NCBI GenBank assembly: GCA_013420905.1
Contig: JAAXNY010000008.1
Location: forward strand, 1,550,001 to 1,614,000
Source of the DNA: Collybia mongolica
Taxonomy: Eukaryota > Basidiomycota > Agaricomycetes > Agaricales > Clitocybaceae
Length of the DNA: 64,000 bases
Reading direction: 5' to 3'
This document shows, one piece after another, positions 7,855-63,276 of this stretch (position 1 is its first letter; each line of letters begins with the position of its first letter). The notes beneath the pieces are model-generated. The model ran no database searches. It saw only the letters and a program-made list of their open reading frames with translations, and was not told where the DNA came from. Position numbers and translations under genes: made by a program.

Positions 7855-9462
7855 CAGTGGCTCAAAAAACTGCCCCAATGTTTGTACATTTTTGAAAGAT
7901 CAATATGGTATGAAGTGCTGACATAAGCAGGGGACCTGGGGTAATTATGTAAGATACTATGACATCGTGGCTTTCCAATGGACCCTGGATCATGTGATTT
8001 GGATCAATATCCATTAAGCTATAAGCCAAACAAAATGGCTACTCATTGGGGCAGTTTTTTGACCCTTATCTTATTTTCCATTATTCTGGCATTTATGATC
8101 CAATGCAAGAACATTATGGACTGTGGGAAGAATAAACAATGTCATGTGACTTTATTTGTATCAATTTGACATGTTGGAATTGGTTCAATCATCTTCTTGA
8201 CCTCTTACCACCATCATGAAAGCCATTTCTACTGCTCAGCACAATACTGTTGTTTCTCTCCTCAATGAGGGCTATTCTCAGCGTCAAATCAAGGAGAAAA
8301 CTGGTCTAGGGAAGGGTACCATCAGTAGGATCAGCAAAGATGTGGATGGAAACAAAGAAAACAACCTTGGTGGCCGCCCCTCCAAGCTGTCTGTTCGTGA
8401 CAAACAGTCAATTATTCGTCAAATCAAGTCAGGGAAGCTTGATAATGCAGTTCAGGCTACCCAATTCATCAATGGCATCATCCCCAATCCTGTCACACCC
8501 CAGACAGTCAGAAATGCACTCAAGGAAAATCAATTTTATGCTGCTACAAAGAGGAAAGCTCCTCTTCTCAAACGAGCCCATCGCATCCGGCGTCTCCAGT
8601 TTGCAAAATATCATGAAAGCTGGACTGTGGAGGACTGGAAAAGGGTTCTATGGACAGATGAGACCAAAATCAATAGGATTGGGTCAGATGGAAAGGTTTA
8701 TGTCTGGAAACAAAGGGGAGAACCACCATCTGATAGAACAACATCACCTACTGTCAAACATGGAGGAGGAGGAAACCTCATGGTATGGGGTTGTATGGGG
8801 TGGAATGGAGTGGGAAAGCTCATAGAGGTGCAGGGGAACATGGACAAGGTTCAATACTGTGAAATTTTGGAGAGTGGAGTTCAGGAAAGTTTTGAGAAGT
8901 TGGAAATGGTGGATGGCGAGCGCTACTTTCAGCAAGATAACGACCCCAAACACACATCTGGACTGGCCACACAGTGGTTTGAAGACAACAACATTCAAGT
9001 CCTTGGCTGGCCTGCCCAATCCCCTGACATGAATCCAATAGAACACCTTTGGGAACATCTCAAGCGCCGTCTTAAAGAATATCCGACACCACCCAAAGGA
9101 GTACATGAGTTGTGGGATAGATTGGCTGAAGAGTGGGGTGAAATTCCACCAGAGGTATGCCAAAACCTGATAGAAAGTATGCCCAGGCGGATACAAGCAG
9201 TTATAAAGGCAAAAGGTGGTCATACAAAGTATTAGATAGAAAATTAATAGAGGGTCAAAAAACTGCCCCAATGAGTAATCATTTTGTTTGGCCTATAGCT
9301 TAATGGGTTTTGATCCAAATCACATGATCCAGGGTCCATTGGAAAGCCACGATGTCATAGTATCTTACATAATTACCCCAGGTCCCCTGCTTATGTCAGC
9401 ACTTCATACCATATTGATCTTTCAAAAATGTACAAACATTGGGGCAGTTTTTTGAGCCACTG
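7855..9462 (+). mobile_element. Tc1/mariner element, copy 1 (full length)
   Basis: 1,608 bp, starting CAGTGGCTC and ending in its complement, flanked by TA at 7853-7854 and 9463-9464. The terminal inverted repeats are about 212 bp (7855-8066 and 9251-9462). Each arm has a mirrored core at both ends: AAAAAACTGCCCCAATG at the outer tip and its reverse complement at the inner border. It is inserted in Helitron debris. Confidence 0.95.
8216..9235 (+). CDS. Tc1/mariner transposase (DD34E), copy 1
   Basis: 339 aa, uninterrupted and intronless. Residues about 1-45 form a first helix-turn-helix (EGYSQRQIKEKTGLGKGTIS), followed by the GRPS linker hook near 53-56 and a second helical DNA-binding region to about 125. 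The catalytic domain has D148 (WTDET), D241 (QQDNDPKHTS) and E276 (NPIEHLW), with 34 residues between the last two as in Tc1-type enzymes. A glycine-rich GGGGNLMVWG lies between. Family role: cut-and-paste transposition into TA. All catalytic residues are present and the TIRs are intact, so this copy is plausibly autonomous. It encodes the same protein as copy 2 residue for residue. Confidence 0.95.
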   Translation: MKAISTAQHNTVVSLLNEGYSQRQIKEKTGLGKGTISRISKDVDGNKENNLGGRPSKLSVRDKQSIIRQIKSGKLDNAVQATQFINGIIPNPVTPQTVRNALKENQFYAATKRKAPLLKRAHRIRRLQFAKYHESWTVEDWKRVLWTDETKINRIGSDGKVYVWKQRGEPPSDRTTSPTVKHGGGGNLMVWGCMGWNGVGKLIEVQGNMDKVQYCEILESGVQESFEKLEMVDGERYFQQDNDPKHTSGLATQWFEDNNIQVLGWPAQSPDMNPIEHLWEHLKRRLKEYPTPPKGVHELWDRLAEEWGEIPPEVCQNLIESMPRRIQAVIKAKGGHTKY

Positions 9463-25990: not shown

Positions 25991-27598
25991 CAGTGGCTCA
26001 AAAAACTGCCCCAATGTTTGTACATTTTTGAAAGATCAATATGGTATGAAGTGCTGACATAAGCAGGGGACCTGGGGTAATTATGTAAGATACTATGACA
26101 TCGTGGCTTTCCAATGGACCCTGGATCATGTGATTTGGATCAAAACCCATTAAGCTATAGGCCAAACAAAATGATTACTCATTGGGGCAGTTTTTTGACC
26201 CTCTATTAATTTTCTATCTAATACTTTGTATGACCACCTTTTGCCTTTATAACTGCTTGTATCCGCCTGGGCATACTTTCTATCAGGTTTTGGCATACCT
26301 CTGGTGGAATTTCACCCCACTCTTCAGCCAATCTATCCCACAACTCATGTACTCCTTTGGGTGGTGTCGGATATTCTTTAAGACGGCGCTTGAGATGTTC
26401 CCAAAGGTGTTCTATTGGATTCATGTCAGGGGATTGGGCAGGCCAGCCAAGGACTTGAATGTTGTTGTCTTCAAACCACTGTGTGGCCAGTCCAGATGTG
26501 TGTTTGGGGTCGTTATCTTGCTGAAAGTAGCGCTCGCCATCCACCATTTCCAACTTCTCAAAACTTTCCTGAACTCCACTCTCCAAAATTTCACAGTATT
26601 GAACCTTGTCCATGTTCCCCTGCACCTCTATGAGCTTTCCCACTCCATTCCACCCCATACAACCCCATACCATGAGGTTTCCTCCTCCTCCATGTTTGAC
26701 AGTAGGTGATGTTGTTCTATCAGATGGTGGTTCTCCCCTTTGTTTCCAGACATAAACCTTTCCATCTGACCCAATCCTATTGATTTTGGTCTCATCTGTC
26801 CATAGAACCCTTTTCCAGTCCTCCACAGTCCAGCTTTCATGATATTTTGCAAACTGGAGACGCCGGATGCGATGGGCTCGTTTGAGAAGAGGAGCTTTCC
26901 TCTTTGTAGCAGCATAAAATTGATTTTCCTTGAGTGCATTTCTGACTGTCTGGGGTGTGACAGGATTGGGGATGATGCCATTGATGAATTGGGTAGCCTG
27001 AACTGCATTATCAAGCTTCCCTGACTTGATTTGACGAATAATTGACTGTTTGTCACGAACAGACAGCTTGGAGGGGCGGCCACCAAGGTTGTTTTCTTTG
27101 TTTCCATCCACATCTTTGCTGATCCTACTGATGGTACCCTTCCCTAGACCAGTTTTCTCCTTGATTTGACGCTGAGAATAGCCCTCATTGAGGAGAGAAA
27201 CAACAGTATTGTGCTGAGCAGTAGAAATGGCTTTCATGATGGTGGTAAGAGGTCAAGAAGATGATTGAACCAATTCCAACATGTCAAATTGATACAAATA
27301 AAGTCACATGACATTGTTTATTCTTCCCACAGTCCATAATGTTCTTGCATTGGATCATAAATGCCAGAATAATGGAAAATAAGATAAGGGTCAAAAAACT
27401 GCCCCAATGAGTAGCCATTTTGTTTGGCTTATAGCTTAATGGATATTGATCCAAATCACATGATCCAGGGTCCATTGGAAAGCCACGATGTCATAGTATC
27501 TTACATAATTACCCCAGGTCCCCTGCTTATGTCAGCACTTCATACCATATTGATCTTTCAAAAATGTACAAACATTGGGGCAGTTTTTTGAGCCACTG
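25991..27598 (-). mobile_element. Tc1/mariner element, copy 2 (full length)
   Basis: 1,608 bp, TA at 25,989-25,990 and 27,599-27,600, 212-bp TIRs, transposase on the minus strand. I saw no nucleotide difference from copy 1 in the stretches compared. The other copy of the host retroposon (63,475 onward) gives the empty TA site. Confidence 0.95.
26218..27237 (-). CDS. Tc1/mariner transposase (DD34E), copy 2
   Basis: 339 aa, identical to the copy 1 transposase at every residue, with D148, D241 and E276 intact and an uninterrupted frame. Inverted relative to copy 1. Identity of protein and element length indicates very recent transposition, or ongoing gene conversion. Confidence 0.95.
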   Translation of the reverse strand: MKAISTAQHNTVVSLLNEGYSQRQIKEKTGLGKGTISRISKDVDGNKENNLGGRPSKLSVRDKQSIIRQIKSGKLDNAVQATQFINGIIPNPVTPQTVRNALKENQFYAATKRKAPLLKRAHRIRRLQFAKYHESWTVEDWKRVLWTDETKINRIGSDGKVYVWKQRGEPPSDRTTSPTVKHGGGGNLMVWGCMGWNGVGKLIEVQGNMDKVQYCEILESGVQESFEKLEMVDGERYFQQDNDPKHTSGLATQWFEDNNIQVLGWPAQSPDMNPIEHLWEHLKRRLKEYPTPPKGVHELWDRLAEEWGEIPPEVCQNLIESMPRRIQAVIKAKGGHTKY

Positions 27599-44358: not shown

Positions 44359-44543
44359 TGTCATGAGTCAATTTTATCTAATCTTTTATCTATTGTTCTA
44401 TGATGTTCTATAAGGTTCCACCACAGTAGTATATGCGCAGTCCATAGTTACATGCATTATCCTCATGGTCTTTAGTATATAGTTTGTTGTTTGTAGTAGA
44501 TAGGACTCTAACTCAAAACTGTTGGTTTTTCTTAATCCTAACA
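44359..44543 (+). repeat. Chromovirus 5' LTR
   Basis: 185 bp, TG...CA ends. About three differences from the 3' LTR, one of them CpG (GCGCAG) to CpA (GCACAG) at about 44,434. Confidence 0.9.
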
Positions 44544-44711: not shown

Positions 44712-45927
44712 TGAAGGGGGGCTCCTGGGCTATAAGTGTGCTGATGCTATGAAATGTAATCTCTTACACACACACACACCAAATCTAACAATCAACACAC
44801 AAACGGTAGGAATTGCCTGTTTTGAGTTCGGGTTCAAGTGCTTGAAAGCACTAAGCTTTGAATAGTACTAGTCAAGGCCCTTTCCAATGATCTCTCAACA
44901 GGTTTGACTCGGACAAAGCTTTAACACAAGTTTAAAACTTGCTAGGTATATTTATAATATCTTTCGATCCAATAGACTGAGTACCAAGTGTACGTTCAAT
45001 TATTAATGATCCCAAGCAGATCTATAAGTCCAAGTGACTTATTAAACAAACAGTGCCAAGTGCACTAAAGGCCAAGTGCCTAGTAATTTCAACAGACAAT
45101 GCGGTACTAAGTTCCAAGTGAACTAGGACTCTTCAATTCTGTGATCTCTTCAAACAATTCCAATCAAGACAACTTGAAGCAATCTGAGCCTTAATTCGGG
45201 CATGCAATAGTGTTTCAACAAATATGATTTGTGTACTCTATAGTAGCATGAAGTGGGGGCAAGATTCCTTACCTTTGTGCTACTCATCTACAGTCTATTT
45301 ATAGTGTACAAACTAAATATCATAAGGAATTGTAAATTTTATATGGAACTGCACTCCCCTGCACCAAGGATCTGTATTTAATGCTGACTTGTCTTCTACA
45401 ACTTGGCGCGCGCGCCATGTGTGCCAATTATGTCGTTACTTGTTACTTATCAAATATTAAAAGAGCTGGCTAAACTCTTATCAAGGCCCGACCGCACACT
45501 TGGTTATTTAAAACAGCGCGGCACTGTCGTTTACTTCTCCTGATCATCCCAGTTGTTATTCACGGTGTCCCGTTTCTTCCAGTAGTTAATACCAAGTGCC
45601 CCTGACTAGGATTGGGTTGTGCAAGTCCTGAATTTACAATTACTTCTCCTATTAATGATGATCCCCAGACTAATGATATCATACTACAACAGTTACTTAT
45701 GAATTAAGATACAGAGGTTGTAACTGGGCATGGTGAATAGGACTAATAATAGGCCGTACTCATAGTCCTCTGTACTGATAGTGTATTATCCATTAGACTA
45801 GTTCACTCTGATTAGCCGTTTTGGAGCTCGACTCTAATCCTTTATTACCGTTTACTTGGTTATTAGAAATGATACTAATAGCCTTACTTGTTGACTTCAT
45901 AAGTGCAAACAATTTTGGGCCCTATCA
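44712..45927 (-). repeat. Full-length LTR2 (1,216 bp), inverted, without internal sequence
   Basis: Starts TGATAGGGCC (45,927) and ends ...CCCCCCTTCA (44,712) on the minus strand. It is followed by chromovirus leader rather than the primer-binding site seen after 47,889. Its outer flank (GACTTGCTGG) matches the left side of the site whose right side (CCAGGATGAT) follows the other LTR2 end at 60,171, implying rearrangement. It is the best reference for the LTR2 family and keeps several CpG dinucleotides (GGCGCGCGCGCC at about 45,404) lost from other copies. Confidence 0.85.
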
Positions 45928-46705: not shown

Positions 46706-47557
46706 ACTTGGGTGGAGTGGGCCAACACACTGTGTGGCAGGTACTCATTCTTTATTTCTTTTCTTAGGAGAAATAAGTCCATTCCACATTCAGGAAGTTG
46801 TAAATGACTAGAAACAATGTAGATGATAGTTTATAGAGGTCATGTGACCCTGGGAAAATGTTACCAAGCAAATAAGCAATGCCTGTGCACAAAAACCATC
46901 AGAACTTACTTTTCCCAGGATCATGGACACTAAATGAGCATTCAGATTGTTGTCATGTATTTGGTATGCTTATGTGATGGAATAGATCATGTGACATATG
47001 TCAATAAATAGAGAATTCAATCCTCTTTGTATTTCAGGTAAATATAGTAGTAGTTTTTCCAATGTTTAGGATAATTTCCCACAAGGGTCATGTTTGGTAA
47101 GGGTCATTGTTGTTATAAGATGTTTGTTCATCTTTGGTATAATACACAGACCTTCAAAACTAGCTGAATCTGGACATTTCTAATATTTCGCTCAAAATAG
47201 ACCATGGGAAAAATGTGCTCAACAAGGAAATTGTAGAGCCATGTTTGTACATTTCAAACATATAAAAACAAAGTTAATAGCTTTACTGGTTATGGAGAAA
47301 ATCACAAAATAAATTGTGAAACACAACACTTTGAAATATTAGATATGCATAATTTTGATGGCATCATCAAAGGCATTATGTAAGCATCCCAAATACATGC
47401 AAATCACATCACAATACTTTGTATTTGTGGAGAAATGCTGTAAAAAGCCATAAGAGAAGAAAAATCCCATTATGGAAATATTTTCCCGCAGTGTTGAAAT
47501 ATGAATGAATGAATGAATCACCTTTCTGCCCGAAAACTGGGTTGATAAAGAACTCGT
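46706..47557 (-). repeat. 852-bp interspersed repeat, copy B
   Basis: Reverse complement of 17,885-18,736 with the same length; includes GAATGAATGAATGAATC at about 47,503. The junction at 47,557 directly abuts a truncated LTR2, so this insertion or a linked rearrangement removed the first part of that LTR. Confidence 0.8.
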
Positions 47558-47889
47558 AATAAGTCACTTGGACTTATAGATCTGCTTGGGATCATTAATA
47601 ATTGAACATACACTTGGTACTCAGTCTATTGGATCGAAAGATATTATAAATATACCTAGCAAGTTTTAAACTTGTGTTAAAGCTTTGTCCAAGTCAAACC
47701 CATCGAGAGATCATTGGAAAGGGCCTTGACTAGTACTATTCAAAGCTTAGTGCTTTCAAGCACTTGAACCCAAACTCAAAACAGGCAATTCCTACCGTTT
47801 GTGTGTTGATTGTTAGATTTGGTGTGTGTGTGTGTAAGAGATTACATTTTATAGTATCAGCACACTTATAGCCCAGGAGCCCCCCTTCA
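47558..47889 (+). repeat. Truncated 5' LTR2
   Basis: Corresponds to the last roughly 330 bp of the 1,216-bp LTR. Contains the TGTGTGTGTG run at 47,821 and ends CCCCCCTTCA. Confidence 0.85.
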
Positions 47890-48098: not shown

Positions 48099-49859
48099 AT
48101 GCAGAAGACTAAAAATTTGCAAAACACTGGAGTAACAGAGCCATTACCACCTCCTAGACACGCACGCACATGAGGATCTTCACAACCAGCCTTTGGATCT
48201 TCAGGACCAAGGCAAGTATTTAGAACCCCAGAGCCCTTAGGAAACATATCAACTACTAGTAGACCAGTAGCACGCAGAAGATTGTCTGTAGTAAACCCAG
48301 TAGCAAACCCAAACTTGTTAGCTACTCAGAACTGTTCAGTAATCATGACTGAACCCCCTTGTAAATATATGCCCCAACCAGGCGTCCGTGATGCACCAGT
48401 ATTCAAAGGAAAAGAGCCCACAGGTTTAATCCAGTTTCTGGAGCGCATGGAGGTCCTATGGAAGGAGTGTAACATTACAAATGATGAAGAAAAGAAGTTA
48501 ATGTTAGGAAAATACACAGACCTACAATCAGAGAATGAGTGGAGAGCATTAGACCACTATAAAACAGGCACTTGGATGGATTTCAAAACAGAGTTGATCT
48601 CTAGTTATCCAGAAGCACTCGATCAAGTAGAAGGATCAGTAGCCAAGTTAAAAGCAGTGTGTTGTGCCAACCCATGTATTGGAGTAACCGATGAGGCCAC
48701 ACTGAAAAAGCTAAAGCGTGAATTCAAAGCAGAATCTATTAAACTCTTGGGAGTCAGGCCACCTATTATCTCTAACCAAGAATTAGTTACCAAGTTCTTG
48801 GGGTGTCTAGACAAAGTCTTCAGATCCCAAGTACAAGGAAGGCTAACCCTGTTAGGGAATAATCAGTCTAATGCCACACAGGCAGGACAGGCCATGGCTA
48901 CAAACAACCAAGCAGATCCTAACACTATTGCCGAAGCTGCTGCACTTGCGCAACAAAAAGGAGATCAGTATGATTTGGAGGAAGTTATAGCAACTGCAAT
49001 CAGCATTTCTGAAGGCGTAGCCAACATGAATATTCCAGACACAAATAGATCTTTCATAATGTCTGTAACAGCAGCAGCAGCACCCAAGATCAAAGTAGAG
49101 ATGGACGAAATAAAACAACAAATAGTTAATTTATTAGACTGTCTCCAAGTAAATGAGAAGAATACAAGGAGTGGATTTGAGGATGTAATGAAAGCGCTTC
49201 AACAAGCAACTGTTCAGAACCATGCCATGAATAGCGTGCCCCAGCAGCATCAGTATCAGAATCAGTATGGAAAGCCTAAAGAAGGACAACCGCAGAGACC
49301 AAATGTGTATAAATCTCACTACTGTTTTACACCCGGACACTTCATCATGGCCTGTCCCAAGAAACAGAAATATTTCGAAGAAGGAAAAATAAAGACCAAT
49401 GCAAATGGAGGAGTATGCCTACCAGATGGATTGTATATTCCCAGAGAACCAGAAATGGTATCATTGAAAGATAAAGTGGAACACTTCCATTCAAAGAAGG
49501 TAGCTGCCCTTTATTACAGAGATGTCACAGAAGGACCCGCTCCAGGAGTATTGTCAGTTATGCATCAGTCACATAATGCAGTAGACAGTAATAACAACAT
49601 TGGAACCTTGAAAGCCCTAATGGCACAAATGGCCCAATTTCAAGTGCAACAAATGTTGGGACAACAGAGTGTGCAAACTGCGTTGCCAGTACTGCCTCAG
49701 ATGCAGAAACAGGAATATATAAATAATAACTATAATCCTACTGCAAAGAGCGCGCCGAATCCTGACATAGTAGCCTTACAAGCACAAATTAGTACTTTTT
49801 TAGGGCAGGTAGCAGAGCTCAATAACCAAAACAAGGTTAAAGAGTTGGGTTTCAATTAG
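48099..49859 (+). pseudogene. Retroelement gag with nonsense codon and damaged zinc knuckle
   Basis: The only upstream in-frame ATG is at 48,099 (MQKTKNLQN). An in-frame TGA at 48,171 follows 24 codons, and the frame is then open to the TAG at 49,857. The capsid-like part includes FKGKEPTGLIQFLERMEVLWKE, NEWRALDHYKTGTWMDFKTEL and SYPEALDQVEGSVAKLK. The nucleocapsid knuckle reads SHYCFTPGHFIMAC: the C-x2-C-x4-H-x4-C pattern is met except that its first Cys is Ser (TCT). Packages genomic RNA in intact relatives. The TGA is what CGA would become by C-to-T change. An internal start at 48,345 is possible. Confidence 0.8.
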
Positions 49860-49864
49860 GTCCA

Positions 49865-51582
49865 ATGAAGGAGGCTAAGGAACACGCTAGACCTATGACT
49901 AGGTCACGTTCCAAGAGACAGCCTGAGGACCTTAGTAAAAATAGAAATAGTCATCAAGAAAGTATAAGTAATGATCCAGAGAGTAGTCAGAGTAGCAGCA
50001 AAGAGGAGCCAGTAGCGCTGCCTCCTAGGAAAAAGAAAGTGAGAATTGTTGAACCATCAGTAAAGTCACCCGTATGAAAAGAATTGCCCTACATTGATGT
50101 GCCCGCAGTACCCTACATACCCTGGAGAACGGAAAGCAACCCTGGACCAGTTGATCCGCTACCTAATTTTAATACCAAGTGCAGTCCGACTTATGAAACT
50201 AAGTCCCTGATAGAAGTAAAAATAAAAAATGGTGATATAATTGCAAAAGTGTTAGACAATCCTATCACATTGACTATGGGAGAGTTAATGGGCTCGTCAA
50301 AAACCATTAGAGATGGAATAAAGAATATTGTAACTGCCAGACGTAAATCCCTCACCCAAAGGGATGCTAACTTGCAAATAAATGAAACAGATGAGGAAGA
50401 CGCCTTACCCTTTGGGAGGGACTGGGAACTTGATGATAACTACTTACAGCATGACACGCTACCAGTAGAGTCAATCCCATTCCAGTCTTTCTTCATCTCA
50501 GAGTATGACCGCGGCAGAATACCTAAGGGATCTATAATATGTGGAGACCCAGTCCTACAATATTTAGAGTCTTTACCAGCCAGGGAAGAACCCAAGCAGT
50601 TGTATGTAGCAAAAGAGTCGGCATCTTTGCGTGCAGTATATCCAGTAATAAATGGGGTAGGAACAGAGGAATCATTATTAGATGGGGGATCCCAAATAGT
50701 ATCAATGGCTAAGCAAACGGCTTTAGACTTGGACATTTCATGGGATCCAGACATTGTCATACACATGCAGAGTGCTAATAAACAAGTAGAGAAAACAGCG
50801 GGACTAGCACGCAACGTCCCTTTCTTGTTTAATGACATGGCCATTTACCTCCAAGTACATATCATAAATTCACCCACATACAAAGTATTGCTTGGGAGAC
50901 TGTTTGATACGCTCACAGAAAGTCAGATCAAAAATGCTAGAGACAGGGGACAAGTAGTCACTATCACAGACCCTAACATGGGACAAAGGTGTACTATCCC
51001 TACCCATGCAAAGGGATCACTGCCTAAGCTGTTGAAAAGACAACTGGAACAGGATTTTCGGCCTTCAATGAATTAATCCAAAGTGATCAAGGAGAGCTAG
51101 CCATAGAAATTGCTGAAGATGAGAATGGAAACTTTATTATAACAGGTTATAGACACCCTACTGATAAGTGGAATTTTGGTCACAAAGAACTTAGAGATGT
51201 CTTTTTGTCTAGAAGTGATGTAAACATGAATAGTACAGTGCCTGAACGCGAATTACTAGCCATGTACTTGGCTTCAGTAGATGAGCATGATGGACCAGTA
51301 ATAAACTATGAGCATAACAGAAGGGACCAGACAAGTACACCCACTAGACCTATGACATATGCTCAAGAACAGCCCATGCTCAATAAGACTTTAAGTAAAT
51401 TAAAGCAGTGGCAAATTGGCACTAATGAGCATGGTCTTGGAACAGTAACAGGTGATAAGTGTAATATTAGAGTCCAATTAGATCAGTCCAATTCAGAGTC
51501 AAGTTCTAGTAAGGAGACCAAGGAGGGGATAGCTCCAGCGCTACCACGGACTACTAAGTCACACCACAAGTTACATAGGTAA
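49865..51582 (+). pseudogene. Retroelement aspartic protease region with stop and frameshift
   Basis: Open from the ATG at 49,865 with a basic, serine-rich leader, an in-frame TGA at 50,075-50,077, and the same frame to 51,076. The retropepsin-like core has ESLLDGGSQIVSMAKQTALDL (the family motif D-S/T-G appears as DGG), SANKQVEKTAGLARNVPF and YLQVHIINSPTYKVLLGRLFD. A coding-like segment in another frame follows to 51,582 (ELIQSDQGELAIEIAEDENGNFIITGYRHP...), so a frameshift lies at about 51,060. Instead of continuing into RT, the sequence ends here. Gag lies in a different frame six bases upstream. Confidence 0.75.
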
Positions 51583-51729: not shown

Positions 51730-53112
51730 TCAAACAGATATGAAGTCATCTTCAACTTCAGGCAAGGGCATGTCAGCCAGAGCTACCTCCTCCTTGTCAT
51801 CATCATCCTGGTCATGGACTTCAGTAGCGCTTGCAGTGGCAGCCTTGTTAGAGCCTCCCTCCAGAGCCGCCTTGTTCATTAGACCGTTAAGGCAGGTGAC
51901 TTTGTCCATAGTGGTGTCACGACACTTCAATAAGAAGGACACTGTATGACTGATCTCCTCCAACTCAGCGCAGTAGTTTAAAAGCATCCTACCAAGGGCT
52001 TGCTTGGTGTGCAACATGGGATTGCCCACATCAGCAATCAAGCGTGCCTGGGCTAAGACTAAATTGTGCTCCTTGGAGGGACGGAAGTCAATAAAGACGT
52101 GAGTATCTTGTACACAGTTAGTATAAAATTAGAATCATCTATTAATAGAAAACGTACCCTCTGCAGATGCCTTTGGATCTTCATCCAGGGTGTCCTGCCT
52201 TGTACGCTTTTTGGGACAAAGAGTGCTGCCGTGATTGAGCTCGGAGTGCTTACCATCCTGTAAGAATAAGAAACGAAGTAATAGTCAAAGTAAAAACAAG
52301 AACGGGTACCTTGATGGCAGCCTTTTCAGCTTTAGTCCTTTTGATGTGGGGAACCTTAATGTTCTCCTTCTCTTTTCGACTACAGGTGATTGGACCTTCA
52401 CTGAGGAGACGACTAGTCACTGGTCCAGAGACAGCAGCGCTGGCTGTAGCACTGGAATCAATGACCATATTCTTGAGTAAAGAAGAGACGCCATTGAGTA
52501 TGTCGCGCACTGATAGCGCGGTAGCTAAAAAGAAACATACCAAGTCAGTACCAGACATTTCAATGTCACCATTATATTTACCACCAGCAATAACTTCACC
52601 TGGAATAGCGGTACCATCCATGTCACCACCAGTGGCAGGGACCTAGTACCAGGATACCATAGTTTAAGGACAGTAAAGTACAAGATAAGGTAAAAAGCAC
52701 GCACTGTGGTTAGAGAGAGGTGCTCAGTGCGGACCTTTTTATGGTGACAGTGAATAGCGGCAGTAAGAGTCACAATGTTACGATAGATGGGCTCTTGAAG
52801 TAACTCGGGGTATACATGTTGTAGTCCCTGGAATGCCTTATGGATGCCAAAGATAACATTTTGCCAGGACTGCTCCATCAGAACCCTTTTGGATCCAGTC
52901 AGGAGTAACTGTAAATTGTAAAAGTTGGTTATGATAATGGCGTTATAAAGATATTTACTTGGTAAAAAGTGTACCGTGGTTTTGCCTAACTTCCGGACAC
53001 TGACCCTTTGTTCAACAAGGGTGTCCATTGATAAACGAGCTTGAAAGGTGTTCCACTGAGCTTGGACCATCTTGAAGTTCTTGATGTCTTGATAGTTGGG
53101 GAGGCCAGTCAT
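51730..53112 (-). CDS. Antisense cargo gene B of the LTR2 element, unknown function
   Basis: Five exons by GT-AG splicing with every phase consistent: 53,112-52,975, 52,908-52,705, 52,642-52,310, 52,257-52,158, 52,106-51,730; 383 aa, no internal stop. Starts MTGLPNYQDIKNF. The middle has WQNVIFGIHKAFQGLQHVYPELL. A basic stretch (KRTKAEKAAIKDGKH) could be a nuclear signal. The last exon is helical (TKQALGRMLLNYCAELEEISHTVSF) and ends in a strongly acidic tail (HDQDDDDKEE...EVEDDF). I recognise no family. It runs opposite to gag and protease and lies inside the LTRs, so the retroelement genomic transcript would carry it unspliced. It could be a captured host gene or a lineage-specific retroelement gene. 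Confidence 0.65.
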
Positions 53113-53932
53113 AATGATGCAGAGGAAATTGGTCTATCTTTCGAAACAGAACATTGTAACAAGAGTATAATAAAGTCTGGCAATGTCTTTTGAAAAATAG
53201 CATGGCCAATGCCCTTTTTATACCTCTACAACTAGGGAAGTGCTACCCAGCCTCTTATTTGTTGCGCATGTTCTACCCCAGAAAAATTTGTACATTTCAA
53301 TTGAACATGTCCGAGATGCATGCCTAATTGAAATGCTGAGCCCAATTTAAAAAGGAGCTCTGTAAAAATTCATGTGGAGCACAACAGTGTCCACATGACA
53401 ACTGGGATAGTTGTATTCAGTGTTGAGGGGGAGATGGGTATAAGCAAAAATTGATTTGGAAAATCCTATCAAGTTTACAAGGATCAAAGTATCAGCGATC
53501 ATGCCACGGTCTTAATGATTGAGAGGATTGCACCAGAATTAACCAAGCACTATTTATAACTTAAGTAGCCGGTGCAAGGTTGGAAGATTTCTTATGAAGA
53601 CAATAGAACAACAGAAAAAGCAGTTGTATTGTTTATAGTCCGGGGGACTGTATATAAGTATGTGTGTTGGACTTCAATGAAAATTGAAGCCCAACAAAAG
53701 CCAGGGGAATGAGTAGTAGTAATAAAAGGGCACAGGGGCCCGGGAAAGCACAAGTAGATAAAAATAGATGGGGGGGCGCAGCGCAGCTACTCCTCCTTGC
53801 TACCAGGCACGGACAAAGAGGAGGCTTATGACAAAGAGCCATCATCAACCTCTGATTTGTCCTCTGAGGGTGGCCAAGGGAGGTTCTGAAACTCCGCATA
53901 AAAGAGGAGAGTGCTCTCTGTGGCTGGCATAG
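53113..53932. other. Spacer between the two antisense cargo genes
   Basis: About 820 bp holding the 5' region of gene B and the 3' region of gene A. No ORF of note. The plus strand has CTATTTATAA at about 53,549 and an AATAAAAGGG at about 53,720; nothing else was recognised. Confidence 0.4.
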
Positions 53933-55744
53933 TCAGCAAGAGGTTTTGAAGGCCCTCCAGGCCTTCCTCCTCATATAACCAACAATGGTGCCAACTATGC
54001 GCACCAACAAAGAGTCACGCATTTCAAGCGCACAGTTAGTGGCCTGAATTACCTCCATGGCAAGAGTGTCTGCACTGTCCAGCTGAGCATATGCTTCAGT
54101 GACCACTAGTAGAATAAGTAAAATCATTTGTAAACAAAAAGACAAAAAGAAAATGGCTCACTGGAGATGCCCACACCAAGCATAGGCCTCAGATCCTCCC
54201 AGAGCCTGGCGCACTTCTGGGGAGTGAGGCTGAAGCTGCACTTCCCCTTCTTGGCGGTAGTGCATTCAATGCATGGTTTACCCCAACCGTTGAAGGAGCA
54301 CTCAATGTCGCCGCGGGTGGTGCACATCGTGCAGGGGTAGCCAACCTAGTAAGAATGATCAGTAACAAGAAATAAAGTGATAATAAACATACAGTAGAGC
54401 GCCGAGGCGCAAGGTCAGACAGCAGGGATGTAATAGGAGACCATAGCGGCATAGGCTCCTGGTTGGGAACCAGCGCATGCTTATGGCATGGCGCCTGAAC
54501 CCCATCCCTAGAATGAGTGGTCTTACGTGACCAACGAGGAGAAAGGGCCGCAGGAGGCAACAACTCCGCGACTCCCTCTTGAGCCAGCTGGCGCGCAATC
54601 TCTTGATCAAAGAGCTGAAGCTCAGGGACCTCATCGCTAACTGGCAGCTGCTCGGAGGACTAAAAAGATAAAAATAAGTAAAGATAAATTGGGTTTAAAA
54701 TAGAAAGGAGACATACGGGACCCACCTCCGTGGGACGCAGCACGGAATCACTGCCAGCCCCTTGGGCACGTGACATGTCAGACTAGAATTTTGAAATCAA
54801 GTCAGGAATAATATAAAGCTCTTGTAGTAAAGGATTGCATACCTGGGGAACTGCGTGGCCTTTGCCCTTGGGCCCAGCATTGCGCTTCCTCTTAAGGGGC
54901 TATTGAAATAAGTCAACAACAGAAGAAAAGTAATAAAAGTAGAAACTGATGAACTGGGGGTGTCAAAACCAGGGAGCGCACAGGCAAGGGTGTGGCAGAC
55001 CAGCTGTCCCGGTACTGATGGTAATGGCACGGCATGCCAACCATGCGAGGGGGGACAAGGAAAGTATCCTGGAAGATACTGTCACTGTTGTCGCGCTCAT
55101 AGCGCGACCCCACCTGGTCCAGAACTTGCTCCACAGTGGGAGCCTGACCCTAAAGTAAAAAGTAATCAGTATGACAAGGACAGAGTAGAGAAGTAAACAT
55201 AAGCCATTCACCAAGAGAATGGAATTGTTTCCCAGGTCAGCTGATATAACTGTGTGCCAGGAAGACCACAAGGCTTCGTGCGCTTCAACCGGGATGTGCA
55301 TCACCTGAAGGTGAAGCACGCGCAGAAGGAGAATAGCTGGGTATGGTAGCAAGAAATGCGCACCACGGACCATGCCAGTGATTGTGTCCTGGGACCAGAA
55401 AATAAGTAATTAGTAAAAGGTTTTTAACAAGTAAAAGATGGGCGTACAATCAGCAAGGAGCAATGATTGACGAAGTCAATTAAATCATCAAGGTTGAGGG
55501 GCCCCTGATGGTCCATACGAGGCGCAAGTTCCTCAGCCATGATGATCCACCCTTGTTCCATGGCGACAAAGATGTCGCCCTCGGCATCTTTGAGGAGGTT
55601 GGAGAATGAAGGGATGGGCTGGTCCACGTAGACCATAGCAGGGGAACGGCCCTCAGTCAGTAAAATCGTGTTGGAGAGCAAAAGAGACAGTGCGGAAGGC
55701 AAGTGCAGAGCATGAGCCATGGCAGAAGTGGAAGAGGAAGACAT
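53933..55744 (-). CDS. Antisense cargo gene A of the LTR2 element, Zn2Cys6-like protein
   Basis: Eight exons by GT-AG splicing, all in phase: 55,744-55,448, 55,388-55,212, 55,149-54,955, 54,899-54,843, 54,782-54,717, 54,659-54,393, 54,345-54,162, 54,105-53,933; 471 aa with no stop. Start MSSSSTSAMAHALHL; an in-frame ATG at 55,873 is an alternative. Exon 4 is a basic KRKRNAGPKGKG patch, a likely nuclear signal. Exon 7 carries a six-cysteine cluster, C-x2-C-x7-C-x8-C-x2-C-x7-C (PCTMCTTRGDIEC, then KPCIECTTAKKGKC), close to the fungal Zn2Cys6 spacing. This suggests DNA binding, but the family is not recognised. The C-terminus is helical. Antisense to gag. Confidence 0.7.
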
Positions 55745-56197
55745 GTTATTTAAAAAGGGTTGGAGCAGTTGAGCAATGCGAATAGCAAGGAAGTTTAGAA
55801 ATGGGCTGTAAAGTCCAAATTGTCTAAAACCTAGCAAAAGTGAGAGCTTTTTAAAAAAACCACAACCCTGCATTGCAAAGCTCTAAAGGACAAGCAGGAG
55901 CACCAATCTCTTGCTGAAGTGTCAGAAACATAACAAGAGAAATGCTCAGATGACTGAAATATCTGTAAAGTGATGTCCAAATGTCAAGTACTCTCTCAGG
56001 AGAAGTATATAACTGTCACGATCCTGATGGGAAGTAGACCTCTGGGCTTGATCCCAACATCACGCGCCTACCTGTCTAAAAGCAGGAACTGTGGTGACCT
56101 TGTACTGGATGATTAGACACGTGCAGACCTGAAGTATTGGACTAACATGCCGGCAAAGAGAGACTGAGGACAGTCTACATTTGTGGTGTGGGGGAGA
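55745..56197 (+). other. Retroelement 3' spacer and polypurine tract
   Basis: Upstream region of cargo gene A on the minus strand, ending in a purine-rich GTGGTGTGGGGGAGA (56,183-56,197) immediately before the LTR TGATAGGG. This is the expected position of the plus-strand priming tract. Confidence 0.6.
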
Positions 56198-56685
56198 TGA
56201 TAGGGCCCGAAATTGTTTGCACTTATAGAGTCAACAAGTAAGGCTATTAGTATCATTTCTAATAACCAAGTAAACGGTAATAAAGGATTAGAGTCAAGCT
56301 CCAAGACGGCTAATCAGAGTGAACTAGTCTAATGGATAATACACTATCAGTACAGAGGACTATGAGTATGGCCTATTATTAGTCCTATTCACCATGCCTG
56401 GTTACAACCTTGGTATCTTAATTCATAAGTAACCGTTGTAGTATGATATCATTAGTCTGGGGATCATCATTAGTAGGAGAAGTAATTGTAAATTCAGGAC
56501 TTGCACAACCCAATCCTAGTCAGGGGCACTTGGTATTAACTACCGGAAGAAATGGGACACCATGAATAACAACTGGGATGATCAGGAGAAGTAAACAACA
56601 GTGCCGCACTGAATAATGGAGGTTGCTAGGCAATGATAGTAGAGATTGGCATGAGCCAATTTCCTGGGAGGTGCTGTTTAAGGTA
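56198..56685 (+). repeat. 3' LTR2, left part
   Basis: Aligns with the LTR2 reference to about 56,627 (AACAGTGCCGCACTG). The next 58 bp to the transposon do not align, and about 0.3 kb of LTR is missing between here and 59,649, so the transposon insertion was accompanied by a deletion or came after one. Confidence 0.75.
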
Positions 56686-59646
56686 CAGACAGGGTCAAAA
56701 TTTTGGTGTATGCCTAAAAAAATAGCTAAAAATATGAAAAATGCACCAATTGACTCCTTTTTTATCATTGAGTTTGATTCCAACAAAAAAGGGAAGTTGA
56801 AGTAAAGGTTGTTGCAATAAAAAAAAAAAATTCTGCCATGGCTCGAGGCTGACCTGCAAAGAAACAGAAAAATACATCAGGTCTATGCAACCAGGGATGC
56901 ACAACCCCATCAACACTGCCATCAGCATATCCAGACCTCATGGACACCAACAGCTTTAATGAACTTGAGGATCTTGGACTTCAGTTTGACAGCACAAGAG
57001 TTGATTGGTGGAGAGAAGAGGTTATTGATGATGGATCTGACATTGACTTGGATGAAAGTGTCATGGACCTTGATGATCTGGAGGATGAGGAATTTACGCA
57101 GAGACTTGTGGAGATGGCAATGAGAGAAGATGAAAACGATCCAGACTGGGTTCCTGCAAGACTGAAAACCAGAAAACACACCAAGAAAGGTCAATCACCT
57201 GCCTCCATTTTTGTCCTGTTGATAAACTTTGTAAATAAAGGGCGGCCAGAAACATATGCAACAGGACCAGATGTCATGAGCAAATCCATTCGCACCGCCC
57301 AGCGTTATGCTAAATCATGGAAGGGTCAAACAAGTCTCGATAACTTCAACTTCAGGAGTACAAACCTCCCTGCATCTTTGAAGCCAGCTGTGCATGCACC
57401 ATTCAAGAATGCTCCACGTACAACCCAAAAACATCCTGCAAAAAAAACCCTATCACCTATCCTCACAGCTGCTGCCCCAACAACCAAAATTTCAACTATC
57501 CCTTGCGTTCGACAAACATCCCAATCACCAAGTTGTGGGGCAATCAGCATTGTCAATTCTGATGAGGAAAGCAGGGGAGGAATGGGTGAAACAGCACCTA
57601 GATCTGATGCTGAATTGGAAAGGATTGAAGCTGAATGTGAAGAGCTTCCATTAGTGGAGGAAGATGCAGAGGCATGGGAAGAGGAGCTTGACACAAATGT
57701 CCAAGACCCTAATGTTGAGCATGAAAGCTGGGATGAGCTGAGGAAACAAATCAAAAGCAATCTGAAGAAACAGAGTAAGACCTTACTGCTGTCCTGCATC
57801 AATCAACTCATGATCCTCTCCAACTTTGCCACCCTATGGCTGAAAGTGTTCTCTCGCATACAGGCCAGTGTGGAGATTGCACAGCAATGGCATGAAGGCC
57901 AAGGAAACTGGTTCGCTCGTCAAGTTCACACTCTTGCTCATCACTATCAGATATTTGAGCAACTTCATAGGGAAAAACAAGGGGGGAGTCGAACCGCAAG
58001 GTCGTGGTTGCATGATGAAACTGTCAAGAAGAAGGTTCTTGATTACTTGACTAACCTCCCAACTGGGAAGGTGACACCCGGTGCTTTGCAGAAGCACATC
58101 AACAATGTGGTTTTCCCAGAGTTGAACATCAAACCAAAGAAACCTCTCACCATCCGGACCGCTCAACGATGGCTGATTAAGCTGGGATGGCGGCACACTC
58201 TTGTTAAGAAGGGGGTTTATATGGATGGTCATGAATGTGCTGATGTTGTCCAATATCGTAACAATGAATTTTTGCCTCTCATGGCTAAGTTTGAGGCTCG
58301 AATGGTTCATTACAAGGGGCAAGAAATGAGAAGAGTAGAACCAAAATTGTTGGAAGGAGAAAAGGAGATTGTCCCACAATTTCATGATGAATGTTGTTTC
58401 CATGCAAATGACCAGTCAAGTCGTGCATGGTGAGTTCTTTTTATGCAATCTATTTCATATCCAATAAATGGATTGCAGGCTTTGGGATGGAGAGCAACCA
58501 CTTCATAAGAAAGGGCATGGACAGCTTATCCATGTTTTGGATTTTATCAACCCGGAGACAGGAAGGCTTGTTGTTTGTGACACTGATGGCAATATCACCT
58601 GTGACGCACAAAAGATCATTTATCCAGGCTCAGATGGTGATCCCTGGTGGGACACGAAGCAGCTATTGACTCAAATAGAAGATGCCCTTGATATTTTCGA
58701 GACTGCACATCCCAGAAAACAAGGCCTTTTCATCTTTGATCAATCCTCAGCCCATGCCTGTCTCCCACCAGATGCCTTAAAGGCCTTCAAAATGAACAAA
58801 TCTGATGGCAGCAAGCAAAGGAAGCAGTGCAACACTGTCATTCCAATGTCAAACCCTTCTGCAGAACAACATGGCAAACCCCAGGCAATGACTCTCCCTA
58901 ATGGACAGCCCAAAGGTCTCCAAACTGTGCTCAAAGAGTGTGGTTTCACAGGCTTGTGCAAGCTGAGGGCAAAATGTTCACCAGATTGCCAATTGAGAGT
59001 CAGAATTGTTGCATGGCTTGTTTCCTCAGCCAACAGGAAGACTTCCAGAACCAACTGTCTCAACTCAAGACTCTGATCAAAGCAAAGGGACATGAATGCA
59101 TTTTCCTACCAAAATTTCATTGTGAGCTCAACCCAATTGAAATGGTATGCCTATCTTCCTCAGCTGGTACTCCAGGGCACTTACAGAATTGCTGATAGTA
59201 CTGGGGTTGGTGTAAATATTGTTACCAAGAGGTAGAGAAAAAAACCTTCCAGGATGCAAAGAATGCAGCTCGGCAGTACCTTGATGCATGTCCAAACGAA
59301 GTTATTCGGTGGTTCATCAACCAATCGTGGCACTTTATGAGTGCATATCAGATGGGATTAACTGGGAAAGCAGCAGAATGGGCCGTAAGAAAGCAAAGAC
59401 AACATTGTGCAGTCTCTTGAAGCGCCATGATGGCAATTGATGCTGTGCTGAACCCTGCATAGACCCCCCATATGTACTGATTTTTGGCCTGAAAATTTTG
59501 GCACTGCTAAAACATTGTTGGAAATTTGATTTGATAGTGTTTTTGGACATTTTCAGACCTCCTGAGAATGAATCTGGGTTCAGAATTCCATAAAAAAATC
59601 TGGTTTGGGCACTATAAAATTTGCAGTGTTTGATTGTCCCCAACTG
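56686..59646 (+). mobile_element. DDE transposon, 2.96 kb, inside the 3' LTR2
   Basis: TA at 56,684-56,685 and 59,647-59,648. Tips CAGACAGGGTC and (reversed) CAGTTGGGGAC are weakly similar, so the TIR is short or decayed. It contains one transposase gene (56,940-59,420). Confidence 0.65.
56940..59420 (+). pseudogene. Basidiomycete DDE-superfamily transposase, one frameshift
   Basis: Exons 56,940-58,429, 58,479-59,144 and 59,199-59,420 with GT-AG introns of 49 and 54 nt. N-terminus acidic (WWREEVIDDGSDIDLDE), then a DNA-binding middle (RSWLHDETVKKKVLDYL, TIRTAQRWLIKLGWRH). Catalytic motifs: FHDECCFH (first Asp, 58,386), LFIFDQSSAHA (second Asp, 58,737) and CELNPIEM|YWGW (Glu, spanning the last intron). 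A one-base deletion near 58,989 shifts the frame between KCSPDC and the continuing IESQNCC segment, so this copy is broken as read. The family has many relatives in mushroom genomes; I do not assign it to a named superfamily beyond DDE. Confidence 0.8.
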
Positions 59647-59648
59647 TA

Positions 59649-60170
59649 TACAAATCATATTTGTTGAAACACTATTGTGTGCCCGAATTAAGGCTCAGAT
59701 TGCTTCAAGTTGTCTTGATTGAAATTGTTTGAAGAGATCACAGAATTGAAGAGTCCTAGTTCACTTGGAACTTAGTACCGCATTGTCCGTTGAAATTACT
59801 AGGCACTTGGCCTTTAGTGCACTTGGCACTGTTTGTTTAAGAAGTCACTTGGACTTATAGATCCACTTGGGATCATTAATAATTGAATGTACACTTGGTA
59901 CTCAGTCTATTGGATCGAAAGATATTATAAATATACCTAGCAAGTTTTAAACTTGTGTTAAAGCTTTGTCCAAGTCAAACCCATCAAGAGATCATTGGAA
60001 AGGGCCTTGACTAGTACTATTCAAAGCTTAGTGCTTTCAAGCACTTGAACCTGAACTCAAAACAGGCAATTCCTACCATTTGTGTGTTGATTGTTAGATT
60101 TGGTGTGTGTGTGTGTAAGAGATTACATTTCATAGCATCAGCACACTTATAGCCCAGGAGCCCCCCTTCA
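59649..60170 (+). repeat. 3' LTR2, right part
   Basis: Resumes at ACAAATCATATTTGTTG and runs to CCCCCCTTCA at 60,170; matches 47,558-47,889 closely in its second half. Confidence 0.85.
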
Positions 60171-60618: not shown

Positions 60619-62226
60619 CAGTGGCTCAAAAAACTGCCCCAATGTTTGTACATTTTTGAAAGATCAATATGGTATGAAGTGCTGACATAAGCAGGGGACC
60701 TGGGGTAATTATGTAAGATACTATGACATCGTGGCTTTCCAATGGACCCTGGATCATGTGATTTGGATCAATATCCATTAAGCTATAAGCCAAACAAAAT
60801 GGTTACTTATTGGGGCAGTTTTTTGACCCTTATCTTATTTTCCATTATTCTGGCATTTATGATCCAATGCAAGAACATTATGGACTGTGGGAAGAATAAA
60901 CAATGTCATGTGACTTTATTTGTATCAATTTGACATGTTGGAATTGGTTCAATCATCTTCTTGACCTCTTACCACCATCATGAAAGCCATTTCTACTGCT
61001 CAGCACAATACTGTTGTTTCTCTCCTCAATGAGGGCTATTCTCAGCGTCAAATCAAGGAGAAAACTGGTCTAGGGAAGGGTACCATCAGTAGGATCAGCA
61101 AAGATGTGGATGGAAACAAAGAAAACAACCTTGGTGGCCGCCCCTCCAAGCTGTCTGTTTGTGACAAACAGTCAATTATTTGTCAAATCAAGTCAGGGAA
61201 GCTTGATAATGCAGTTCAGGCTACCCAATTCATCAATGGCATCATCCCCAATCCTGTCACACCCCAGACAGTCAGAAATGCACTCAAGGAAAATCAATTT
61301 TATGCTGCTACAAAGAGGAAAGCTCCTCTTCTCAAACGAGCCCATCGCATCCAGCGTCTCCAGTTTGCAAAATATCATGAAAGCTGGACTGTGGAGGACT
61401 GGAAAAGGGTTCTATGGACAGATGAGACCAAAATCAATAGGATTGGGTCAGATGGAAAGGTTTATGTCTGGAAACAAAGGGGAGAACCACCATCTGATAG
61501 AACAACATCACCTACTGTCAAACATGGAGGAGGAGGAAACCTCATGGTATGGGGTTGTATGGGGTGGAATGGAGTGGGAAAGCTCATAGAGGTGCAGGGG
61601 AACATGGACAAGGTTCAATACTGTGAAATTTTGGAGAGTGGAGTTCAGGAAAGTTTTGAGAAGTTGGAAATGGTGGATGGCGAGCGCTACTTTCAGCAAG
61701 ATAACGACCCCAAACACACATCTGGACTGGCCACACAGTGGTTTGAAGACAACAACATTCAAGTCCTTGGCTGGCCTGCCCAATCCCCTGACATGAATCC
61801 AATAGAACACCTTTGGGAACATCTCAAGCGCCGTCTTAAAGAATATCCGACACCACCCAAAGGAGTACATGAGTTGTGGGATAGATTGGCTGAAGAGTGG
61901 GGTGAAATTCCACCAGAGGTATGCCAAAACCTGATAGAAAGTATGCCCAGGCGGATACAAGCAGTTATAAAGGCAAAAGGTGGTCATACAAAGTATTAGA
62001 TAGAAAATTAATAGAGGGTCAAAAAACTGCCCCAATGAGTAATCATTTTGTTTGGCCTATAGCTTAATGGGTTTTGATCCAAATCACATGATCCAGGGTC
62101 CATTGGAAAGCCACGATGTCATAGTATCTTACATAATTACCCCAGGTCCCCTGCTTATGTCAGCACTTCATACCATATTGATCTTTCAAAAATGTACAAA
62201 CATTGGGGCAGTTTTTTGAGCCACTG
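60619..62226 (+). mobile_element. Tc1/mariner element, copy 3 (full length)
   Basis: 1,608 bp, TA at 60,617-60,618 and 62,227-62,228, 212-bp TIRs. Differences from copies 1 and 2 that I could identify are T at 60,803, 60,808, 61,160 and 61,181 and A at 61,353, every one a C:G to T:A transition. Confidence 0.95.
60980..61999 (+). CDS. Tc1/mariner transposase (DD34E), copy 3
   Basis: 339 aa, open throughout, differing from copies 1 and 2 at three residues: R61C, R68C and R125Q, each from a CpG-containing arginine codon. The catalytic D148, D241 and E276 are unchanged. The substitutions lie in the DNA-binding and linker region, so TIR recognition may be weakened. Host context is a dead integrase. 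Confidence 0.9.
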   Translation: MKAISTAQHNTVVSLLNEGYSQRQIKEKTGLGKGTISRISKDVDGNKENNLGGRPSKLSVCDKQSIICQIKSGKLDNAVQATQFINGIIPNPVTPQTVRNALKENQFYAATKRKAPLLKRAHRIQRLQFAKYHESWTVEDWKRVLWTDETKINRIGSDGKVYVWKQRGEPPSDRTTSPTVKHGGGGNLMVWGCMGWNGVGKLIEVQGNMDKVQYCEILESGVQESFEKLEMVDGERYFQQDNDPKHTSGLATQWFEDNNIQVLGWPAQSPDMNPIEHLWEHLKRRLKEYPTPPKGVHELWDRLAEEWGEIPPEVCQNLIESMPRRIQAVIKAKGGHTKY

Positions 62227-63091: not shown

Positions 63092-63276
63092 TGTCATGAG
63101 TCAATTTTATCTAATCTTTTATCTATTGTTCTATGATGTTCTATAAGGTTCCACCACAGTAGTATATGCACAGTCCATAGTTACATGCATTATCCTCATG
63201 GTCTTTAGTATATAGTTTGTTGTTTGTAGTAGATAGGACTCTAACTCAAAACTGTTGGTTTTTCTTAGTTCTAACA
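63092..63276 (+). repeat. Chromovirus 3' LTR
   Basis: 185 bp, same ends as 44,359-44,543. Followed by ATAGC, the duplicated target. Confidence 0.9.

What the first reader, a model, noticed from the sequence alone, without database searches (positions are those of the whole stretch)
51730..55744. LTR retroelement carrying two intact, intron-containing antisense genes
Seen: two minus-strand gene models of 8 and 5 exons whose 11 introns are all GT-AG and phase-consistent, with no stop in 471 and 383 codons, sitting between the protease end and the purine tract/3' LTR of a gag-protease element. Inference: antisense orientation would let introns survive a retrotransposition cycle, because splicing acts only on the opposite transcript. 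The element's sense genes are broken by nonsense codons while the antisense genes are not. One encodes a Zn2Cys6-like cluster, the other an acidic-tailed basic protein, so they could regulate the element, counter host silencing, or be captured host cargo. I know of no described basidiomycete element with this layout.
Basis: partly seen in the sequence, partly recalled or inferred. Interest (0 to 1): 0.9.

Follow-up and report, generated by a model that had tools for sequence, protein, structure and literature searches.

The report
Retrotransposon with two spliced antisense genes
A jumping element found about a hundred times in this fungal genome carries, besides its own copying genes, two extra intron-containing genes on the opposite strand, and the pattern of changes between copies shows that selection has kept both proteins.

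Summary
The gene models are real. The window holds a damaged copy of a Ty3/gypsy-type element of about 14.2 kb: LTR, gag, protease, RT-RNase H-integrase, antisense gene 1 (383 aa, 5 exons), antisense gene 2 (8 exons, 520 aa in most sister copies examined), LTR. This copy has lost about 3.5 kb of pol, so it only looks like a gag-protease element. Gene 1 is intact here; gene 2 is frameshifted in exon 8.

Marker counts in this genome agree: gag 109, pol 110, gene 1 103, gene 2 107. Of 77 gene 1 sites with a pol marker nearby, 76 face it on the opposite strand. Both genes show purifying selection (dN/dS 0.16-0.29; pol 0.07-0.19). An exon-intron junction occurs 101 times; two spliced junctions, 0 times. 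Five young copies have 4-bp target duplications. Collybia nuda has a 64%-identical annotated relative of gene 1.

Function is inferred: nuclear accessory proteins serving the element. Antisense genes at this position are known in plant Tat/Retand elements and Botrytis Boty. Two genes with 11 introns in a probable basidiomycete element look like a new variant. No transcript data were available.

The parts
47557..47889 (+). 3' part (last 333 of 1216 nt) of the element's 5' LTR; the rest is missing
   Evidence: direct repeat with 59838-60137 and inverted copy of the LTR at 44712-45927
48174..49859 (+). gag remnant, 561 codons open; 619 in a young sister copy; CCHC knuckle
50078..51076 (+). protease ORF remnant, 332 codons open; 409 in a young sister copy
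51028..51582 (+). pol remnant: start and C-terminal tail of the pol ORF, now fused across the deletion
51469..51486 (+). junction of a deletion of about 3.5 kb (RT, RNase H and integrase lost in this copy); 18 nt aligns on both sides
51730..52106 (-). antisense gene 1, exon 5 with stop; acidic tail
   Evidence: Collybia nuda relative
52158..52257 (-). antisense gene 1, exon 4; basic stretch PKKRTRQ
52310..52642 (-). antisense gene 1, exon 3; contains a possible 27-nt mini-intron at 52525-52551
52705..52908 (-). antisense gene 1, exon 2
52975..53112 (-). antisense gene 1, exon 1 with ATG
53211..53223 (-). TATA-type box GTATAAAAAGGGC about 100 nt before the gene 1 ATG
   Evidence: kept in 8 of 8 aligned sequences; 1 match in the window with 0.04 expected
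53787..54105 (-). antisense gene 2, exon 8; frameshifted in this copy by a one-base deletion, so that reading ends at codon 471
54162..54345 (-). antisense gene 2, exon 7; six-cysteine cluster C-x2-C-x7-C-x8-C-x2-C-x7-C
54393..54659 (-). antisense gene 2, exon 6
54717..54782 (-). antisense gene 2, exon 5
54843..54899 (-). antisense gene 2, exon 4; basic stretch PLKRKR
54955..55149 (-). antisense gene 2, exon 3
55212..55388 (-). antisense gene 2, exon 2
55448..55744 (-). antisense gene 2, exon 1 with ATG
56183..56197 (+). purine-rich tract just before the 3' LTR (approximate limits)
   Evidence: sequence read
56198..56611 (+). 3' LTR, first 414 nt
56612..59645 (.). foreign insert inside the 3' LTR; 277 nt of LTR missing at the site
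59646..60170 (+). 3' LTR, last 525 nt

Best explanation
Shown: the two minus-strand genes are standing parts of a Ty3/gypsy-type LTR retrotransposon family with about 100 copies in this genome, placed between integrase and the 3' LTR, antisense in nearly all linked sites, and under purifying selection. Shown: their introns persist in genomic copies while no spliced copy was found at the two junctions searched. Inferred: the sense genomic RNA, transcribed from the 5' LTR, passes the antisense genes through reverse transcription with the introns inert, because their splice signals are on the other strand. Inferred: after integration the two genes are transcribed towards pol from promoters inside the element (a TATA-type box precedes gene 1), spliced, and translated. 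Inferred: both proteins act in the nucleus for the element, gene 2 as a cysteine-cluster DNA- or protein-binding factor and gene 1 as a basic, acidic-tailed helical partner. They would control transcription of the element or counter its CpG-linked silencing; a transcriptional role is also what has been proposed for the antisense ORFs of plant Retand elements.
For: Marker counts at up to 3 mismatches: gag 109, pol 110, gene 1 103, gene 2 107, reversed controls 0. Layout: of 100 listed gene 1 sites, 77 have pol within 5 kb, 76 of them opposite and downstream, 69 within 60 nt of the median spacing; of 100 gene 2 sites, 86 have gene 1 within 5 kb, 84 on the same strand and downstream. LTR start next to gene 2 in 29 of 30 loci, one of them by a 30-nt match only.

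Coding: gene 2 reads 520 codons in 15 of 24 distinct copies. In 9 young copies (96.0-99.8% identical to each other) gene 1 reads 383 codons in 9 of 9, gene 2 520 in 8 of 9, all introns GT-AG in 9 of 9. dN/dS: gene 1 0.27-0.29 in 5 chosen of 21 possible pairs, gene 2 0.16-0.29 in 6 chosen of 300; codons without CpG 0.09-0.19; pol 0.07-0.19 in 4 pairs.

Retrotransposition: 4-bp duplications in 5 of 5 copies with both ends in hand. Introns: 101 unspliced junctions against 0 and 0 spliced. A young copy has open gag, protease and pol frames; its pol is closest to Ty3 in the PDB. TATA-type box in 8 of 8. Collybia nuda relative of gene 1, 64% over 390 columns. CpG observed/expected 0.95-1.00 in the 9 young copies, 0.30-0.58 in 13 older ones including the window.
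Against: No RNA or protein evidence of any kind. No homologue of gene 2 and no Pfam family for either protein, so the nuclear and regulatory role rests on basic stretches and the cysteine cluster. Structure models were too poor to use, pLDDT 44 and 39. Over all sites, exons of gene 2 differ more from the window than introns do in 24 of 24 comparisons; the coding signal is clear only in the codon-position and dN/dS tests and is sharper when CpG columns are set aside. Apart from the window's own deletion, 11 exon indels were seen in 7 copies, only 3 of them multiples of three. In 11 of 24 distinct copies one or two gene 2 introns have lost GT-AG. Five of 74 gene 2 sites with pol within 8 kb are on the same strand as it.
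Confidence: 0.6

Rival explanations
1. The two proteins are working parts of the particle or of the integration step (for example a nucleocapsid helper, chaperone or nuclear-import factor), not regulators of transcription or silencing.
For: Both are conserved about as strongly as a helper of replication would be; gene 1 is basic and its relative is modelled as mostly helical, though at pLDDT 39.
Against: A particle protein would be expected in the sense frame with gag; antisense expression needs integrated DNA of the element and separates it from gag expression (inference).
Confidence: 0.2
2. The antisense genes are captured host genes carried as passengers.
For: They have spliceosomal introns of 47-66 nt and look like host genes; gene 1 has an annotated relative in Collybia nuda.
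Against: They are as numerous as gag and pol, selection on them is close to that on pol, and no host parent was found. Host searching was limited: the own-genome searches scored only the best 40 candidates.
Confidence: 0.1
3. The antisense RNA itself is what matters, as a limiter of copy number or a source of small RNA, and the coding frames are secondary.
For: Antisense and sense transcripts would overlap over about 4 kb; antisense RNA regulation is proposed for other elements (passages of PMC7264820).
Against: Low dN/dS and 3-5 times more change at codon position 3 mean the proteins are selected.
Confidence: 0.05
4. The exon models are an artefact of linking open stretches.
For: A free exon-chaining script also produced other long chains with wrong junctions, so open length alone proves little.
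Against: The models hold in sister copies, with selection by codon position. Two of four gene 1 junctions fall in conserved gap-free stretches of the Collybia nuda alignment and a third in a less conserved one.
Confidence: 0.02

Closest known systems
Plant Tat/Retand-lineage Ty3/gypsy elements with antisense ORFs between pol and 3' LTR (Grande gene23, RIRE2, Retand, PvRetro13)
   Same: Antisense coding genes at the same place, present in most copies, long pol-3' LTR region of 2.9-6.6 kb, own promoter and nuclear protein reported for Grande, proposed regulatory role (passages of PMC11963269 and PMC7264820)
   Different: Retand proteins mostly carry the TRP28 domain, which neither protein here has. 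The word intron does not occur in either paper's text. Here there are two genes with 11 introns in a fungal element.
Boty of Botrytis cinerea with antisense gene brtn
   Same: A fungal LTR element with an extra antisense gene between pol and 3' LTR (as cited in PMC7264820 and PMC8365987, passages)
   Different: An ascomycete element with one named antisense gene. Zhao et al. 2011 itself was not read, so introns and sequence likeness could not be compared.
HBZ of HTLV-1 and APH-2/3/4 of related deltaretroviruses
   Same: Spliced antisense genes on the 3' side; HBZ, APH-2 and APH-4 are described as nuclear, and several affect LTR-driven transcription (passages of PMC10186651)
   Different: Their promoters lie in the 3' LTR. 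Here a TATA-type box lies inside the element before gene 1 and the genes have 4 and 7 introns; no bZIP family hit.
VANC anti-silencing proteins of Arabidopsis VANDAL transposons
   Same: A model for an element-encoded protein that removes silencing marks from its own family (abstract of PMC10398659)
   Different: Plant DNA transposons (recalled); likeness is functional only and is conjecture here.
Bdelloid rotifer LTR elements with ORF3 (GDSL, DEDDy, env)
   Same: Extra genes described as separate transcription units expressed from spliced messages (passages of PMC5408684)
   Different: The passages seen do not say that the ORF3 genes are antisense; the enzymes are of known families.

Membership tests
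Ty3/gypsy LTR retrotransposons (Metaviridae) | Domain order gag, protease, RT, RNase H, integrase | tested here: met
   Young copy L059. RNase H and H2C2 integrase domains pass Pfam's cut-offs; RVT_1, rve, the protease and the CCHC knuckle are below theirs.
Ty3/gypsy LTR retrotransposons (Metaviridae) | RT closest to Ty3 | tested here: met
   Best PDB match Ty3 Gag-Pol, E 6e-28; no tree built
Ty3/gypsy LTR retrotransposons (Metaviridae) | LTRs TG...CA with short target duplication | tested here: met
   LTR 1216 nt, 4-bp duplication in 5 of 5 copies with both ends
Ty3/gypsy LTR retrotransposons (Metaviridae) | tRNA primer binding site after the 5' LTR | not tested
   Sequence printed, not compared with tRNA genes
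[quoted passage not shown]
Plant Tat/Retand antisense-ORF elements | TRP28 domain in the antisense protein | tested here: not met
   No Pfam hit at E 5 for either protein
Boty with brtn | Homology to brtn | not testable with these tools
   brtn sequence not held; gene 1 and gene 2 searches returned no Botrytis protein
HBZ-type antisense retroviral genes | bZIP domain | tested here: not met
   No Pfam hit
HBZ-type antisense retroviral genes | Promoter in the 3' LTR | tested here: inconclusive
   TATA-type box is inside the element for gene 1; promoter of gene 2 unknown; no transcript ends
Zn2Cys6 fungal transcription factors | Pfam Zn_clus match | tested here: not met
   No hit at E 5
Zn2Cys6 fungal transcription factors | Six cysteines spaced C-x2-C-x6-C-x5..12-C-x2-C-x6..8-C (recalled) | tested here: not met
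   Six cysteines kept in 18 of 20 sequences, but with x7 between the second and third
Transduced host gene | Present in only a few copies, host parent known | tested here: not met
   As many copies as gag and pol; no parent found, with limited searching

The most novel reading that the evidence does not exclude
A five-gene retrotransposon that uses both strands: replication genes on the sense strand and, on the other, a two-protein nuclear counter-silencing or transactivation module whose introns are shielded from removal by orientation. That would be a fungal counterpart, arrived at independently, of HBZ and VANC.
Probability: 0.25. Interest if true: 0.82.

Novelty: new variant of a known kind. 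Interest (0 to 1): 0.62.

Why it matters
Introns are normally lost when genes pass through RNA, so their persistence in an LTR element is a clean natural test that orientation protects them. About 100 copies of graded CpG decay, and selection on two unknown proteins, make the question of what antisense accessory genes do for an element directly testable in a fungus. If similar gene pairs sit in other Agaricales genomes, some 'orphan' predicted genes there are element genes.

Tried and rejected
A free exon-chaining script found long chains whose junctions the sister copies do not support, so open length was not used as evidence. Overall exon-against-intron divergence and indel lengths did not mark the exons as conserved; codon positions and dN/dS did. 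AlphaFold models of exon 7 and of the Collybia nuda protein were too poor for a fold search. Two searches for gene 2 relatives found nothing; both scored only candidates sharing words with the query. A host-gene insertion at this one site was rejected by the copy counts. For a sixth copy (C1:4936695) only the 3' end lay where predicted, so its duplication was not read. Seven of 31 other gene 2 sequences were dropped from the alignment as partial (L005, L009, L011, L014, L016, L017, L020), and L023 and L036 are one copy. The exon 7 protein alignment used 14 of the 20 sequences seen. Paper searches timed out and 37 was rejected for its wording, so the statement that no basidiomycete case was found in print rests.
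Full report
What is there. The minus strand holds two spliced gene models exactly as described: gene 1, 5 exons at 53112-51730, 383 codons; gene 2, 8 exons from 55744, first stop after 471 codons; 11 GT-AG introns of 47-66 nt. They lie between a gag-protease-pol remnant and the 3' LTR that begins at 56198.

The element. DNA of gene 2 recurs in the same genome (46.0 Mb, 26 contigs): 40 matches were scored out of 128 candidates, at 82-100% identity including the window itself. The LTR is 1216 nt, TG...CA, with a solo copy in reverse at 44712-45927. In a young sister copy the sense strand reads gag (619 codons), protease (409) and a pol frame open for 1333 codons to the end of the fetched stretch, with RT, RNase H, H2C2 and integrase domains; RT and integrase core fall below Pfam's cut-offs, but the best PDB match is Ty3 Gag-Pol, E 6e-28. 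One copy measures 14,234 bp from LTR to LTR (positions). The window copy is a defective one: 561 and 332 codons remain open in gag and protease, about 3.5 kb of pol is deleted at 51469-51486, the 5' LTR is cut, and the 3' LTR holds a 3.0-kb insert.

The antisense genes belong to it. Conserved 30-letter markers, at up to 3 mismatches, count 109 for gag, 110 for pol, 103 for gene 1 and 107 for gene 2, with 0 for each reversed control. The markers were chosen as conserved among copies already fetched. Of the first 100 listed sites of each, 77 gene 1 sites have pol within 5 kb, 76 of them on the opposite strand and downstream; 86 gene 2 sites have gene 1 within 5 kb, 84 on the same strand and downstream; 77 pol sites have gag within 8 kb, 75 in normal order; 74 gene 2 sites have pol within 8 kb, 69 in the expected opposite and downstream order and 5 on the same strand. 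Sites without a partner may be truncated, interrupted, or lack one among the listed 100. The start of the LTR lies beside gene 2 in 29 of 30 loci, in one of them by a 30-nt match only.

They are coding and selected. In 24 distinct copies with the full gene 2 region (7 partial sequences dropped), 15 read 520 codons; 13 keep all seven GT-AG introns and 11 have one or two introns that have lost GT-AG. The window's 471 codons come from a one-base deletion in exon 8 that none of the 23 other copies shares. For gene 1, 4 of the 6 copies first examined read 383 codons. In 9 young copies, 96.0-99.8% identical, gene 1 is open in 9 and gene 2 in 8, and all 11 introns are GT-AG in 9. At columns free of CpG, pairwise differences in gene 2 are 0.035, 0.022 and 0.114 for codon positions 1, 2 and 3, with introns at 0.079; in gene 1, 0.026, 0.011 and 0.058, introns 0.080. 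dN/dS is 0.27-0.29 for gene 1 (5 chosen pairs of 21), 0.16-0.29 for gene 2 (6 chosen pairs of 300) and 0.07-0.19 for pol (4 pairs); in codons without CpG it is 0.09-0.19, 0.10-0.13 and 0.07-0.12. Results against: over all sites exons of gene 2 differ more than introns in 24 of 24 comparisons, and of 11 exon indels outside the window's own, in 7 copies, 3 are multiples of three. Those 7 copies have CpG observed/expected of 0.30-0.58, so they are among the decayed ones.

Introns and retrotransposition. Five of five copies with both ends in hand have 4-bp target duplications (ACGG, ACGT, TCGG, GCGA, CCGG), so they moved as LTR elements; a sixth attempt gave one end only. The script itself tested for a 5-bp duplication, which was negative in all five; the 4-bp ones were read from the printed flanks. 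The exon 3/intron 3 junction of gene 1 occurs 101 times; the spliced exon 3/exon 4 and exon 1/exon 2 junctions occur 0 times. No unspliced control was run for the exon 1/2 pattern, and 3 mismatches limit the test to fairly close copies. The simple reading is that the sense RNA is the copied template and the antisense splice signals are inert on it.

Relatives. A protein search with gene 1 found one hit, a hypothetical protein of Collybia nuda (BDZ94DRAFT_1234893), 64% identical over 390 columns; the exon 1/2 and 3/4 junctions fall in gap-free conserved stretches, the 4/5 junction in a less conserved one, and the 2/3 junction cannot be judged. Whether that gene sits in an element could not be seen. 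Gene 2 had no hit in two searches. Neither protein has a Pfam match at E 5.

How it may work. Gene 1 has a TATA-type box about 100 nt before its ATG, kept in 8 of 8 sequences, so a promoter inside the element is likely; gene 2 starts 454 nt from the LTR and its promoter is unknown. Gene 1 has a basic PKKRTRQ stretch and an acidic tail; gene 2 has PLKRKR and a six-cysteine cluster kept in 18 of 20 sequences. That such basic stretches direct proteins to the nucleus is recalled knowledge. CpG content falls from 0.95-1.00 of expectation in the 9 young copies to 0.30-0.58 in 13 older ones including the window, which fits methylation and decay of silenced copies but does not prove it. A nuclear role in expression or counter-silencing of the element is therefore my best reading, at 0.6 for the whole statement; the structure is close to certain, the function is not.

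What is known. [quoted passage not shown]), and cite brtn in Botrytis Boty (Zhao et al. 2011 was not read). Spliced antisense genes are known in deltaretroviruses (passages of PMC10186651). I saw no account of multi-intron antisense gene pairs in a basidiomycete element in the listings of the seven searches that ran. I file it as a new variant of a known kind.

Noticed in passing
L039-L048 (young copies of the element): All five target duplications read ACGG, ACGT, TCGG, GCGA, CCGG, that is NCGN: the integrase may prefer a central CG.
   Followed up: partly
L037, L051-L058: Among 9 young copies gene 1 varies at 15 of 1152 coding columns and gene 2 at 102 of 1548; gene 1 introns also vary less (4 of 226 against 16 of 376), which suggests regional homogenisation or recombination between copies.
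   Followed up: no
52525-52551: A 27-nt stretch in gene 1 exon 3 that starts GT, ends TTTTTAG and keeps the frame; the Collybia nuda protein has a 9-residue gap there, so it may be an ultra-short or vanishing intron.
   Followed up: partly
8201-9235, 26218-27252, 60965-61999: Three copies of a Tc1-like transposon (DDE_3 in the one tested) that are 99.6-100% identical over about 1.6 kb; another copy sits inside gene 2 of L034.
   Followed up: partly
56612-59645: Insert in the 3' LTR with open frames of 526 and 202 codons and no Pfam hit at E 0.01.
   Followed up: no
44712-45927: A solo LTR of the same family in reverse orientation, lying between the copies of a 185-nt direct repeat at 44359-44543 and 63092-63276.
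   Followed up: no
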